Below, in pieces: positions 20,645 to 25,560 of a stretch of 26,145 nt of DNA; within the stretch, counting starts at the first letter, position 1; every line of letters begins with the position of its first letter. The stretch covers positions 1-26,145 of IMG/VR virus record IMGVR_UViG_3300042934_000995. One strand, written 5' to 3'. Made by a program: the position numbers and the translations under genes. Below the pieces are notes generated by a model that did not search any database, was not told the origin of the DNA, and worked only from the letters and a program-made list of their open reading frames with translations. The DNA comes from a virus.

Positions 20645-21400
20645 ATGGATAGTTTTTTAAGTTGGATAGGAGGGAAAAAACTATTAAGAAAAGAAATAGT
20701 GGATAGATTTCCTGAAAAAGTAAATAGATATGTCGAAGTATTTGGAGGAGCAGCATGGGTATTGTTTTATAAAGATAAACATGCAAATTTTGAAGTATAC
20801 AATGATTATAACTCCGAGTTGGTAAATATATTCAGGTGTGTAAAATATCATAGGGAAGAATTGCAAAGAGAACTGAATTATTTTCTAAACTCCAGGGAAA
20901 TGTTTCAAGACTATTTAGCTCAATATAAGACCAGAGGACTTACAGACATACAAAGAGCTGCAAGATATTTTATGATAATAAAAACTTCATATGGAAGTAA
21001 AGCCAGTACATATGGATGCGTAAAAAAGGATACAGCAAAATATATTAATTATCTTACAGACATACAAAATCGACTAAGCTCAGTTATAATAGAAAATAGA
21101 GATTTTGAAAAAATAATAACCACATACGATAGAGAAGGTACATTATTTTATTTAGATCCACCATACTACGGTACTGAAAACTATTATAAAGAGGTAGACT
21201 TTACTACTGATGATCATGAACGATTAAAGAGAGCATTAGTTAATATAAAAGGTAAATTTATTTTATCATATAATGATTGCCCAGAGATTAGAGAGTTATA
21301 TAAAGATTATAAAATTGAAGAAATTAAGAGAAAAAACAATTTAACTTCAAGATATAGTAATGCAGATAAAGAGTTTAGTGAATTGTTAATAGTTAATTAG
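20645..21400 (+). CDS. dam: D12-class N6-adenine DNA methyltransferase (Dam-like)
   Basis: 251 aa, ATG after GAGGTGA. Dam-family motifs: N-terminal SFLSWIGGKKLLRKEI, SAM-binding motif VEVFGGAAWVLF (about 31-42), motif IV DPPYYG (about 175-180, in LFYLDPPYYGTE), and motif VI-like KGKFILSYND. The central target-recognition region includes TSYGSKASTYG. Dam-type enzymes mostly methylate GATC, but the target of this one cannot be read. No partner restriction gene adjoins it, so it is a solitary enzyme, perhaps protecting phage DNA or marking it for regulation. It is divergent from the LexA-like gene and shares the intergenic control region. Confidence 0.9.
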   Translation: MDSFLSWIGGKKLLRKEIVDRFPEKVNRYVEVFGGAAWVLFYKDKHANFEVYNDYNSELVNIFRCVKYHREELQRELNYFLNSREMFQDYLAQYKTRGLTDIQRAARYFMIIKTSYGSKASTYGCVKKDTAKYINYLTDIQNRLSSVIIENRDFEKIITTYDREGTLFYLDPPYYGTENYYKEVDFTTDDHERLKRALVNIKGKFILSYNDCPEIRELYKDYKIEEIKRKNNLTSRYSNADKEFSELLIVN

Positions 21401-21771: not shown

Positions 21772-22140
21772 TTGCCAAGAAAAATTCTTTGTTCCATGGG
21801 GTCGTTTGGTGAGCTTCTTTCTGAAATGATAGAAGAAAAGAATATGACCAAAACAAAATTCTATGAAGAATTAGGTATATCAAAAACATATTTTTTTGAT
21901 GTCTTAAAAGGTAGAGTAGTACCGCCATGTAGTGAAATGCAATTTAGGATTATACAAATACTACAGCCATCTGTAGAAAAGAGAAAACAATTCTTTGAAC
22001 TTGCAGCAGAAAAACGAAATGAAATGCCTGCTGATATTGTGTGGTACTACCGGTCGCAAAATAACCGAAATAAAATAAGAAAGAGTATAGACTATTCAGA
22101 ACTTCTAAAATCCGGAGGAAAAAATAATGCTGTTGAATGA
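21772..22140 (+). CDS. XRE-type HTH protein, likely controller of the RM operon
   Basis: 122 aa, TTG start after AGGGGTGG; ATG 21796 is an alternative. The Cro/CI-like helix-turn-helix spans about 11-50: FGELLSEMIEEKNMTKTKFY, ELGISKTYFFDVLKGRVVPP. The rest is helical and basic. It heads an operon with the RM and S genes and overlaps the RM gene by 14 bases. The inverted repeat over the operon's -10 suggests autoregulation in the manner of C proteins of type II systems. It is longer than classical C proteins (~80-100 aa). Control function is inference from position. Confidence 0.78.
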   Translation: MPRKILCSMGSFGELLSEMIEEKNMTKTKFYEELGISKTYFFDVLKGRVVPPCSEMQFRIIQILQPSVEKRKQFFELAAEKRNEMPADIVWYYRSQNNRNKIRKSIDYSELLKSGGKNNAVE

Positions 22141-24109
22141 TATTTTTAAAAATACTAATTACGAGGATTCTTTGTTTAGCGATGAGGTGAGAACAGCTAT
22201 TGAATCATCGATTTTTACAAAATTTGTCCGTGGATCAGAAGTACCATATATAGGATGCTTAGTGCGCAAAAAGGATATTAAATTGACACCGGAAGAAGCT
22301 GTTCGTCAGCTGTATATTTATAGATTGATTAATGAATATGGCTATCCTATTGATAGAATTCAGTTGGAAACGCCAATTCATTTTGGAAGAGAGGTAAAAA
22401 GAGCGGATATAACTATTATGGATAAAGACCGTAATATGGTACCGTATATTATAGTCGAACTTAAAAAACCTAAACTAACGGACGGCAAGGAGCAGCTGAA
22501 ATCCTATTGTAATGCTACAGGTGCGCCTATTGGAGTTTGGACAAATGGTGAGCAGATATCCTGCTATAATAGAAAAGACCCAAATTTTTTTGAGTCAATT
22601 ACCGATATTCCTAAGGCTACACAAAAATTATCTGATATTTTAAACGAAAAATTTACCTATGAAGACTTAAAGAAAAGAGATAAAATCAGTATCGAACGAC
22701 GCTCTCTCCGTAACTTGATTAAAGAAATGGAAGATGAAGTGCTTGCAAGTGCAGGTGTTGATTCATTTGAAGAAATTTTTAAACTTATTTTCGCAAAACT
22801 TTACGATGAACTTATCTGTGCCAACGATAAAACAGCATATTTACATTTTCGCAATAGCGGAGATACTGATTTTGAATTAAAAGTTAAAATTCAAGCTTTG
22901 TTTGACGATGCAAAAAAGAAGTGGGAAGGTGTTTTTGTCGATGAAAGCAAAATTCTGCTTTCACCCTCTCATCTTGCCGTTTGTGTTTCCACTTTGCAGG
23001 ATATTAAGCTTTTTAACAATAATCTCGATGTCGTTGACGATGCTTTTGAATACCTGATGAGCAAAGCACAAAAGGGCGAAAAAGGACAATACTTTACACC
23101 TCGTTATGTCATTGATATGTGCGTAAAAATGATGAATCCATCTGCTAAGGATAAAATCATTGATACAGCTTGCGGAAGTTCTGGTTTTACTGTACACAGC
23201 ATTTTTAAAGTGTGGAAAGATATTCGTCGTGAAAAGGGCTTAGAAGAGGGAGAGGGCTTTACTGCAGCAGAGAGAATAATAGAAGAAAAAACCTTCGTCC
23301 GAGATAATGTATTCGCTATTGATTTTGACGAAAAGACTGTACGCGTTGCTCGTACACTCAATTTAATTGCTGGCGATGGACAAACAAATGTATTGCACCT
23401 CAATACACTTGATTACTCTCGATGGAACGAAATCACCAAGCAGGAAGACTGGAACGATACATATAATGAAGGATTCAAGAAATTAAAAAAGCTACAACCA
23501 AAAGGTAGTAATGATTACAGTCAGTTTGACTTTGACCTTGTTATGGCAAATCCCCCTTTTGCAGGTGATATTAAAGAAAATACTATTCTTTCCCATTATG
23601 AACTTGCTAAGAATGATAAAGGTAAGTGGCAAAAGGCTGTTGGCAGAGATATTCTATTTATTGAGCGCAATTTGAATTTTTTGAAGCCAGGCGGAAGAAT
23701 GGCGGTTGTATTACCGCAGGGTAGGTTCAATAATTCAAGCGATAAACAGATTCGTGAATTTATCGCTGAGCGCTGTCGCATTCTTGCTGTTGTAGGTCTT
23801 CATGGAAATGTTTTTAAACCTCACACTGGAACTAAAACCTCAGTTTTATTTGTGCAAAAGTGGGATGAAGTACTATGCCCGAAAAAAGAAGATTACCCTA
23901 TCTTTTTTGCTACAATGCAGAAACCAAGTAAAGATAATTCTGGCGATAAAATATATGTGAAAGATAAAAATGGAGAAATTTCCCTAGATTCGCACAAGCA
24001 TTTTATTGTTGATCATGATCTATATAATCACGATGGTCTAACACAGGATGGTATTGCCGAAGCATTTATTGAATTTGCGAAAAAGGAAGGTTTAAGTTTT
24101 TTTCGATAA
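22127..24109 (+). CDS. fused restriction nuclease/N6-adenine methyltransferase (BcgI-like RM subunit)
   Basis: 660 aa, ATG after GGAGG. N-terminal HSDR_N-like nuclease: Glu81 (QLETPIHFG), Asp94 (RADITIMD), Glu111-Leu-Lys113 (IIVELKKPK) and QLKSY at 123-127, i.e. the PD-(D/E)XK site with QxxxY. Residues ~165-310 are helical linker like HsdM N-termini. Methyltransferase: GQYFTPRYV (320-328), SAM motif DTACGSSGF (346-354), and catalytic NPPF (475-478). No DEAD helicase motor exists in the window. With a separate S gene next, the organisation equals BcgI-type (type IIB) enzymes: one chain cuts and methylates, the other reads DNA. It ends after a run of seven T (see junction). Confidence 0.85.
   Translation: MLLNDIFKNTNYEDSLFSDEVRTAIESSIFTKFVRGSEVPYIGCLVRKKDIKLTPEEAVRQLYIYRLINEYGYPIDRIQLETPIHFGREVKRADITIMDKDRNMVPYIIVELKKPKLTDGKEQLKSYCNATGAPIGVWTNGEQISCYNRKDPNFFESITDIPKATQKLSDILNEKFTYEDLKKRDKISIERRSLRNLIKEMEDEVLASAGVDSFEEIFKLIFAKLYDELICANDKTAYLHFRNSGDTDFELKVKIQALFDDAKKKWEGVFVDESKILLSPSHLAVCVSTLQDIKLFNNNLDVVDDAFEYLMSKAQKGEKGQYFTPRYVIDMCVKMMNPSAKDKIIDTACGSSGFTVHSIFKVWKDIRREKGLEEGEGFTAAERIIEEKTFVRDNVFAIDFDEKTVRVARTLNLIAGDGQTNVLHLNTLDYSRWNEITKQEDWNDTYNEGFKKLKKLQPKGSNDYSQFDFDLVMANPPFAGDIKENTILSHYELAKNDKGKWQKAVGRDILFIERNLNFLKPGGRMAVVLPQGRFNNSSDKQIREFIAERCRILAVVGLHGNVFKPHTGTKTSVLFVQKWDEVLCPKKEDYPIFFATMQKPSKDNSGDKIYVKDKNGEISLDSHKHFIVDHDLYNHDGLTQDGIAEAFIEFAKKEGLSFFR
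24097..24109 (+). promoter_or_regulatory. T7 run at the RM/S junction: possible -1 slippage site
   Basis: Seven T (24097-24103) in AGT TTT TTT CGA TAA contain the heptamer T TTT TTT in phase with the RM frame, two codons before its stop. A -1 shift there enters the S frame without any stop, giving FF-SISPSVKPFNEAKYK and on to 25560. Confidence 0.45.
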
Positions 24110-24153
24110 GCCCATCTGTTAAACCTTTCAATGAAGCCAAATATAAGGCATTG

Positions 24154-25560
24154 ATGGATGGGCTGGAAGCAGTAGAAATTAGCTTCGCTCAGATTACTAA
24201 ACATAAATATTATCGTTTAGATAATGAGTATTTTTTAAAACAATATCTGTTAAATGAAGCTCAAATTCAGTCCTTTGGATATAAACAAATAAGCGATATT
24301 GCTTATAAAATAACAGATTTTGGAGCATATTCACAAACCAATTTTATAGAGCTATATGAAAAGGGAATAAATTTTTTTAGAAATCAAGATGTAAAAGAAA
24401 ATTGGATCGATTTTTTGGGATGTGCCAAAATTAGTCATAACGCTTATGAAAAGTTAACATTGAAGTTAGAAGAAGGAGATATTCTCATTCCTAGAGCAGG
24501 TACATTAGGAAATGCGGCAGTGGTTTCATCTGATTGTTTACCCGCTACAGCAAATCAAAATTTAGCTGTTATTAGAAATTTAAAGAGCTTTTTACCCAAT
24601 TATGTATCGACCGTTTTGTCTTCAAGACTTGGGAAATTACAGATAAGTAGGACATCTACAGGCAATGTTCAACAATGGCTAAATTTGGAAACAATAAGCA
24701 ACATAAAGATTCCTTCTACTTCACTGCTATTTCAGAAACAAATACAGTGTACAGTTAATAAAGGTGTTGATTTAGCTAAGAAGGCAGCTAATATATATTC
24801 TCAAACTGAACAATTCTTACTCTCAGAACTTGATATGACTGATTTCACACCTTCTTTAGAAGATGTAGCAGTTAAGTTATTCTCTGATAGTTTTGGCAAA
24901 AGTGGTCGCCTTGATGCGGAATACTACCAACCAAAGTATGAAGATTATATGTGGCATGTAAAAGCATATTCAGGCGGATATACTACAATAAATGATAAAT
25001 TCAGACAAGTGACAACAAAATATCAAAAAACAGAGCATGAATATCCATATATTGAAATTAGTGACATAAATGTAGGCGATGGTTCATTTTCTTTCAATAT
25101 TATACCATCAGAAAAATTGCCTGCAAACGCCAAAATTAAAGTATCTCTATATGATCTGCTTATTTCTAAGGTCAGACCTTACCGTGGAGCAGTTTCAATA
25201 ATCAATCATAAAATTGATAACTTAATTGTGAGTGGTGCATTTACAGTTTTACATGAAAAATCTGATTATCCAGTAGAGACACTTTCTGTTTTGTTAAGAA
25301 CTACAGTATACAAAGATTGGTTCTTAAAATGGAATGTTGGCACTTCTTATCCAGTAATCAAAGATGAAGATGTTCTAAATCTACCTATACCGCTGTTCAA
25401 AGATGAGATACATGTGAAGATTAAGGAAAACATTGTAAGTGCATATATTCTCCGAGATCAATCTGAACAATTGCTAGAAAATGCGAAAAGAGCGGTTGAA
25501 ATAGCGATAGAGCAAAGCGAGGATAAAGCTATAAAGTGGCTTGAAAATGTAAGTATATAA
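24154..25560 (+). CDS. specificity subunit (HsdS-like, two target-recognition repeats)
   Basis: 468 aa from ATG 24154 (weak AAGG 5 nt upstream; TTG 24151 also possible). Two half-repeats each begin RLDxEY: RLDNEYFLKQY (about residue 21) and RLDAEYYQPKY (about 252). Each is followed by a target-recognition domain with LEEGDILIPRAGTLGNAAVV or 'DLLISKVRPYRGAVSI' and ends in a long helix (NKGVDLAKKAANIYSQTEQF; ENIVSAYILRDQSEQLLENA). It directs the RM subunit to a bipartite site. The reading frame is open and protein-like for 50 bases before the start (PSVKPFNEAKYKALMDGLEA), so the natural N-terminus may lie upstream, reached by a -1 shift from the RM gene. Confidence 0.88.
   Translation: MDGLEAVEISFAQITKHKYYRLDNEYFLKQYLLNEAQIQSFGYKQISDIAYKITDFGAYSQTNFIELYEKGINFFRNQDVKENWIDFLGCAKISHNAYEKLTLKLEEGDILIPRAGTLGNAAVVSSDCLPATANQNLAVIRNLKSFLPNYVSTVLSSRLGKLQISRTSTGNVQQWLNLETISNIKIPSTSLLFQKQIQCTVNKGVDLAKKAANIYSQTEQFLLSELDMTDFTPSLEDVAVKLFSDSFGKSGRLDAEYYQPKYEDYMWHVKAYSGGYTTINDKFRQVTTKYQKTEHEYPYIEISDINVGDGSFSFNIIPSEKLPANAKIKVSLYDLLISKVRPYRGAVSIINHKIDNLIVSGAFTVLHEKSDYPVETLSVLLRTTVYKDWFLKWNVGTSYPVIKDEDVLNLPIPLFKDEIHVKIKENIVSAYILRDQSEQLLENAKRAVEIAIEQSEDKAIKWLENVSI

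What the first reader, a model, noticed from the sequence alone, without database searches (positions are those of the whole stretch)
24080..24200. RM and S genes may be joined by slippage on seven T
Seen: the RM frame ends TTT TTT CGA TAA, and the -1 frame is open from 24073 through the whole S gene. That frame encodes a protein-like stretch (SPSVKPFNEAKYKALMDGLE) before the first usable S start. The shift point is T TTT TTT. Inference: a share of product could be a ~1120-aa single-chain RM-S enzyme, or the two genes derive from a fusion split by one indel. Either way the annotated S start probably truncates the natural N-terminus.
Basis: partly seen in the sequence, partly recalled or inferred. 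Interest (0 to 1): 0.58.

Follow-up and report, generated by a model that had tools for sequence, protein, structure and literature searches.

The report
Ribosome slip joins restriction enzyme halves
In this phage genome, and in the same place in dozens of relatives from many bacterial phyla, a DNA-cutting/modifying enzyme and its DNA-recognition part sit in two reading frames joined by a conserved ribosome-slipping signal, so one message should yield both the enzyme alone and the enzyme fused to its recognition part, probably in the ratio its assembly needs.

Summary
RM (22127-24109) ends in T_TTT_TTT (24097-24103) and the -1 frame runs on through S. Of 110 assessable loci, 74 have S in the -1 frame behind a canonical slippery heptamer (TTTTTTT 45, TTTTTTC 14, GGGAAAG 14, AAAAAAG 1). 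Another 15 are in-frame RM-S fusions that keep the run, and there the -1 frame stops at once: the mirror image, as in E. coli dnaX. A covarying stem follows, mostly 5-6 nt on, stronger than in synonymous-codon shuffles in 85 of 89. Upstream SD-like motifs are enriched. All 19 relatives ending in FW lack the signal. Both arrangements predict a short RM and a long RM-S (660 and 1144 aa here). Best reading: programmed -1 frameshifting supplies RM and RM-S for an (RM)2S-type enzyme resembling BsaXI/BcgI. Frameshifting was not measured and the stoichiometry purpose is inferred. Some independent initiation of S at 24151/24154 is not excluded. I found no printed report of frameshifting in restriction systems, in an open-licence library only.

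The parts
22127..24109 (+). RM gene, zero frame, 660 aa: nuclease domain (HSDR_N_2, about 22289-22612) and N6 adenine methyltransferase (about 23024-23995); the short product
   Evidence: best solved relative by sequence RM.BsaXI 8w0p_A, E 8.7e-22
24084..24087 (+). Shine-Dalgarno-like AGGA about 10 nt upstream of the slip site, possible stimulator
   Evidence: enriched in the family, 63 of 89 against 44.0 +/- 4.1 in synonymous shuffles
24097..24103 (+). slippery heptamer T_TTT_TTT (X_XXY_YYZ in the RM frame)
   Evidence: first Phe codon TTT in 74 of 74 T-type loci
24107..24109 (+). TAA stop of the unshifted RM product
24109..24122 (+). 5' arm of the downstream stem (AGCCCATCTGTTAA)
   Evidence: fold -22.2 kcal/mol, z -3.57; covariation
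24151..24164 (+). 3' arm of the stem (TTGATGGATGGGCT)
24103..24192 (+). -1-frame linker SISPSVKPFNEAKYKALMDGLEAVEISFAQ, conserved where the slip signal is present
24103..25560 (+). S (specificity) part in the -1 frame, 485 aa plus stop, two target-recognition domains (about 24238-24702 and 24931-25392)
   Evidence: model pLDDT 85.7; Foldseek to PacII S, 1yf2, BsaXI S, EcoKI S
22127..25560 (+). predicted long product RM-S, 659 + 485 = 1144 aa, by -1 frameshift at 24097-24103
   Evidence: inference from the above; natural in-frame counterparts L032, L058, L074, L086
24151..24156 (+). possible independent S starts, TTG 24151 and ATG 24154 with weak SD (TAAGG); both lie in the 3' arm of the stem

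Best explanation
The RM/S junction is a programmed -1 ribosomal frameshift site. Part of the ribosomes read RM to its TAA and release a 660-aa nuclease-methyltransferase. A set share slip back one base on T_TTT_TTT, helped by an SD-like motif upstream and a stem downstream, and go on through S to give a 1144-aa RM-S chain. The two products would assemble as RM + RM-S, i.e. two catalytic modules on one two-domain specificity part, the (RM)2S make-up of Type IIB enzymes such as BsaXI and BcgI. Shown by sequence: heptamer, frame, spacing, covarying stem, SD-like enrichment, mirror-image fusions, linker present with the signal. Inferred: that slippage happens, its efficiency (about half would give 1:1), the assembly, and that the ratio is what selection keeps.
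For: Of 110 assessable non-redundant loci, 74 are split with S in the -1 frame behind a heptamer, 15 are in-frame fusions with the heptamer, 21 have none. The four heptamer types differ in sequence but not in place, so the slip, not the letters, is kept. First slip Phe is TTT in 74 of 74 T-type loci against 1450 TTT: 882 TTC elsewhere; 22 of those loci prefer TTC elsewhere. The three slip codons are the three most conserved of 22 comparable positions. Stem score mean 27.4 against 12.6 in synonymous shuffles, p <= 0.05 in 85 of 89. Spacing 5 or 6 nt in 72 of 89. 42 double-changed pair cells against 9.5 shuffled and at most 16 when slid (44 loci). SD-like 63 of 89, never above 54 in 200 shuffles. 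In the fusions the -1 frame stops at the first codon after the heptamer in 14 of 15 (random positions 12.3%) and at the second in 1 of 15; these fusions need at least 3 separate label changes on the tree. New viral contigs scanned afterwards: 5 of 7 carry heptamer, -1 S and stem. All 19 relatives ending FW lack the heptamer; the 13 of them with a found S lack the linker (S match starts at residue 19 or later). L046, a fusion whose S part is only about one recognition domain long, has lost the heptamer though it nests among slip-bearing relatives. EcoKI M-S fusion needs extra HsdM in vitro (PMC3510504 passages).
Against: No measurement of frameshifting or of either product. In the window's own clade an ATG/TTG with a weak SD could start S on its own. 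L008, L016, L033 and L014 do not pass the stem test. SD-like motifs are absent in 10 of 14 GGGAAAG loci. L052 keeps the -1 S but only A_TTT_TTC. L138, a phage relative, has no listed heptamer and no S found. L020, L034 and L056 have short or broken -1 frames. The single-domain exception L046 is one case; a search of 396 genomes of its order found no second.
Confidence: 0.86

Rival explanations
1. S is made only as a separate protein by translational coupling or re-initiation at TTG 24151 or ATG 24154, as EcoKI hsdM-hsdS is coupled; the open -1 frame is incidental.
For: In the window an ATG with a 5-nt SD match lies 45 nt after the RM stop. EcoKI genes overlap by 1 nt and are coupled (PMC3510504 abstract). 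Public annotation of the E. coli and Klebsiella copies lists two genes.
Against: 24 of 74 split loci have no ATG/GTG before the recognition domain and 3 of 74 (L018, L034, L042) no ATG/GTG/TTG. One search prints 25 and 4; I take out L021, where the motif was matched by chance at the first residues and an in-frame ATG is present. In loci without a recognised domain motif the limit was residue 45. Heptamer, stem and linker conservation and the 15 mirror-image fusions are unexplained.
Confidence: 0.06
2. Both: RM-S by frameshifting plus some free S from the internal start in the window's clade.
For: Conserved M with SD-like sequence in most of that clade.
Against: The start lies inside the stem and is not conserved outside the clade; the SD match also follows from the codons of the conserved residues.
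Confidence: 0.2
3. Transcriptional slippage on the T run gives a mixed mRNA with the same two products.
For: Seven T in a row; dnaX of Thermus uses transcriptional slippage on nine A (PMC3711429 passage).
Against: 15 of 89 loci have only six T and 14 use GGGAAAG, which should not slip this way; spacing and stem fit the ribosome.
Confidence: 0.04
4. Phase variation or a frameshift mutation (pseudogene).
For: Homopolymers often vary in restriction genes (recalled).
Against: Same -1 frame and heptamer in loci of many named phyla; identical T7 in 4 of 4 near-identical enterobacterial copies.
Confidence: 0.01

Closest known systems
dnaX tau/gamma programmed -1 frameshift
   Same: X_XXY_YYZ heptamer with flanking stimulators, two products sharing the N-terminus, both arrangements (long product in the zero frame or by recoding) reported (PMC3711429 passages)
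   Different: Replication clamp loader, not restriction; here the added part is a DNA-specificity subunit
Type IIB restriction enzymes BsaXI and BcgI
   Same: RM subunit of nuclease plus methyltransferase, S with two recognition domains; RM.BsaXI best solved match; (RM)2S in PMC11997821, 2RM:1S for BcgI in PMC4081073, both passages
   Different: There RM and S are described as separate subunits; the word frameshift does not occur in the held text of either paper
Single-chain RMS Type IIB enzymes (AloI, PpiI, CjeI, TstI)
   Same: RM and two-domain S in one chain, like the fusions here
   Different: [quoted passage not shown] whether they carry a slip signal was not tested
EcoKI engineered M-S fusion
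   Same: C-terminus of M joined to N-terminus of S works; extra HsdM needed in vitro (PMC3510504 passages)
   Different: Engineered, separate HsdR, no slip site
MADS mad2/mad5
   Same: Best NCBIfam hits for RM and S
   Different: 309 and 144.5 bits, below the 720 and 400 cut-offs
PADLOC MTase_I model PDLC03034
   Same: RM matches over nearly its whole length, 1083 bits
   Different: The model covers the short product only; the tool's entry names no frameshift or fusion

Membership tests
Programmed -1 ribosomal frameshift signal | X_XXY_YYZ heptamer in the zero frame at the frame overlap | tested here: met
   window T_TTT_TTT; 89 of 110 assessable loci
Programmed -1 ribosomal frameshift signal | RNA structure starting 5-8 nt downstream (PMC4066793 passage) | tested here: met
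   window 5 nt; 72 of 89 at 5 or 6 nt; covariation
Programmed -1 ribosomal frameshift signal | SD-like motif 6-17 nt upstream (optional) | tested here: met
   63 of 89 against 44.0 +/- 4.1; absent in 10 of 14 GGGAAAG loci
Programmed -1 ribosomal frameshift signal | measured frameshifting in vivo or in vitro | not testable with these tools
   needs reporter, blot or mass spectrometry
Type IIB restriction-modification | nuclease and methyltransferase in one RM subunit | tested here: met
   HSDR_N_2 and N6_Mtase; BsaXI match
Type IIB restriction-modification | S part with two recognition domains | tested here: met
   AlphaFold model of S, Foldseek to two-domain S subunits
Type IIB restriction-modification | cleavage on both sides of a bipartite site | not testable with these tools
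   needs purified enzyme
Type I restriction-modification | HsdR helicase-nuclease partner | tested here: not met
   no recurrent flanking family in 46 loci looks like HsdR: 8 representatives scanned gave no Pfam hit, RhuM, GGDEF/EAL, Helicase_C/DbpA or GmrSD; limited to about 5 kb of flank
MADS | MAD2 and MAD5 above curated cut-offs | tested here: not met
   309 of 720 and 144.5 of 400 bits

The most novel reading that the evidence does not exclude
Ribosomal frameshifting is the only source of the specificity part in a widespread class of restriction enzymes, and its efficiency is a control point: a change in translation (phage takeover, Phe-tRNA charging, arrival in a new host) shifts the RM to RM-S ratio and so when the enzyme methylates or cuts.
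Probability: 0.12. Interest if true: 0.9.

Novelty: new variant of a known kind. Interest (0 to 1): 0.73.

Why it matters
Programmed frameshifting in bacteria is known mostly from insertion elements, phages, dnaX and prfB. A conserved case in a restriction-modification family would give a ready mechanism for setting the ratio of catalytic to specificity subunits. It bears on an open question in print, how single-chain RMS enzymes work with one catalytic part for two recognition domains (PMC4081073), since a hidden short RM could supply the second. It also means that annotations of these genes as two proteins, or as one fusion, each miss a product.

Tried and rejected
Phase variation, transcriptional slippage, pseudogene and pure re-initiation were considered and set aside for the reasons given under rivals. 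Rfam at E <= 1 on 23900-24400 gave only two matches below gathering score (rli27, SNORD35), neither at the stem. A search for more single-recognition-domain fusions like L046 found only L046 itself in 396 genomes of its order. Short S frames in L014 and L056 were looked at as further single-domain cases; both are near contig ends, so undecided. The 1170-aa fusion model (L074) has pTM 0.54 and low confidence at the linker, so no geometry is drawn from it beyond domain order. Alignment A2 and its consensus fold agree with A1 but hold close relatives.

Rows dropped: of 130 records (129 loci and the window) 10 were duplicates and 4 did not reach the RM end; 6 of the remaining 116 do not cover the junction. 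L024 and L084 were given their heptamer by the method because the best blast segment ended early. The tree used 109 rows, by a quick method with long branches flagged. One search counted L021 as lacking a start codon by a motif artefact; the counts in this report leave it out.

Literature: searches returned no papers. Searches returned papers of which none, by title or by the passages opened, reports frameshifting in a restriction system. In PMC4066793 the hsdS hit is a strain genotype; in PMC3750655 the programmed frameshift passage is on recA. The library is open-licence PMC only; supplements of PMC3711429, where 146 recoding clusters are reported, could not be read, and only the first 300,000 characters of PMC5009743 are held. 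All papers were seen as search listings, abstracts or passages (find), none in full.

Full report
What is in the sequence. RM runs 22127-24109 and ends AGT TTT TTT CGA TAA; S lies in the -1 frame, open from 24073 to 25557. Seven T stand at 24097-24103 so that T_TTT_TTT reads X_XXY_YYZ in the RM frame. RM has an HSDR_N_2 nuclease domain and an N6_Mtase domain, S a weak Methylase_S hit. The window is an IMG/VR virus record with terminase, portal, head, tape-measure and holin genes.

Relatives. RM relatives came from genome contigs (79 loci), viral contigs, plasmid and phage records (four fetched) and four phylum samples (16 of 386, 11 of 398, 7 of 395, 7 of 398 genomes). After removal of 10 duplicates and 4 that stop short, 116 remain, of which 110 cover the junction. 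Class A: 74, S in the -1 frame after a canonical heptamer. Class B: 15, in-frame fusion with the heptamer. Class C: 21 without a listed heptamer (the call prints 27, including the 6 not assessable). Of those 21, 19 end in FW; of these the 13 with a found S have it starting at query residue 19 or later, i.e. without the linker. The other two are L046 and L052.

The signal. Class A heptamers: TTTTTTT 45, TTTTTTC 14, GGGAAAG 14, AAAAAAG 1; class B: TTTTTTT 14, TTTTTTC 1. Such heptamers are rare elsewhere in the same genes, 67 in 47045 codons. In T-type loci the first Phe is TTT in 74 of 74, though TTC makes up 882 of 2332 Phe codons elsewhere and is the majority in 22 of these loci. The preceding Ser is AGT in 67 of 70. 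Behind it lies a stem, 5 or 6 nt on in 72 of 89; its strength beats synonymous-codon shuffles at p <= 0.05 in 85 of 89, the exceptions being L008, L016, L033 and L014. On the 44 loci of one register, 93.3% of cells pair, 42 cells are changed on both sides against 9.5 in shuffles and at most 16 when slid; one pair occurs as C-G, U-A, A-U and G-C. These controls do not fully remove relatedness. The window's own stem folds at -22.2 kcal/mol, z -3.57. SD-like motifs 6-17 nt upstream: 63 of 89, shuffles 44.0 +/- 4.1, highest 54 in 200 shuffles.

The mirror image. Random positions in the same genes give 12.3%, and 23.3% for either. On the RM tree class B needs three changes, forced by well-supported branches (quick method). 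So the arrangement flipped more than once while the two-product outcome was kept. L058 even has a different hairpin at this place.

A natural exception. L046 is an in-frame fusion of about 970 aa whose S part is about 270 aa and ends with the usual C-terminal segment, so probably one recognition domain; it lacks the heptamer and nests among class A. With one recognition domain per catalytic part no extra RM would be needed. This is one case and no second was found.

Later test. A scan of viral contigs with an RM alignment gave ten loci, three seen before and seven new; of the seven, five have heptamer, -1 S and stem, L138 has neither heptamer nor found S, and L143 is too distant to judge.

Enterobacteria. 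Three of 5426 E. coli genomes and one Klebsiella plasmid carry nearly identical copies; the junction with AAGGAGGG, T7 and stem is identical in all four and annotated as two genes. This gives material for a laboratory test and argues against phase variation.

How it should work. In S a model shows two recognition domains with two long helices matching PacII, BsaXI and EcoKI S subunits; RM matches BsaXI. BsaXI is (RM)2S (PMC11997821, abstract and passages) and BcgI 2RM:1S (PMC4081073 passage). An engineered EcoKI M-S fusion needs extra HsdM in vitro (PMC3510504 passages). A frameshift share of about one half would give RM and RM-S one to one, hence two catalytic parts per S. The share is not known. 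The linker is low-confidence in the fusion model.

Alternatives. Re-initiation alone fails because 24 of 74 class A loci have no ATG/GTG and 3 no ATG/GTG/TTG before the recognition domain (less L021, see rivals) and because it does not explain heptamer, stem or fusions. It may add free S in the window's clade. Transcriptional slippage does not fit TTTTTTC or GGGAAAG.

Print. The searches named under Tried and rejected found no report of frameshifting in restriction systems; the library is partial.

Noticed in passing
window 20645-21400: Dam-like D12 adenine methyltransferase upstream of the RM gene.
   Followed up: no
window 21772-22140: Small ORF overlapping the RM start by 14 nt, weak AimR N-terminal hit below cut-off; could be a regulator.
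   Followed up: no
L047:8401-9216, L059:8752-9546, L085:9389-10177: Unknown ORF of about 265 aa directly after S (family found in 14 of 46 loci examined), no Pfam hit.
   Followed up: partly
L046:4989-7898: In-frame fusion with about one recognition domain and no slip site, nested among slip-bearing relatives.
   Followed up: partly
L034 and L038 (Polaribacter sp. MSW5): Two copies of the system about 13 kb apart; S of L034 is frame-broken.
   Followed up: no
L058:7043-7090: Slip site followed by an unrelated hairpin in place of the usual stem.
   Followed up: no
L138: Phage relative whose RM ends SFLK with no listed heptamer and no S found downstream.
   Followed up: no
L085 and L130, downstream of S: Two DUF262 genes next to the system in the Klebsiella plasmid and an E. 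coli chromosome.
   Followed up: no
window RM and S against L002-L013: S diverges fast (about 24-32% identity) while RM stays at 80-89%.
   Followed up: no
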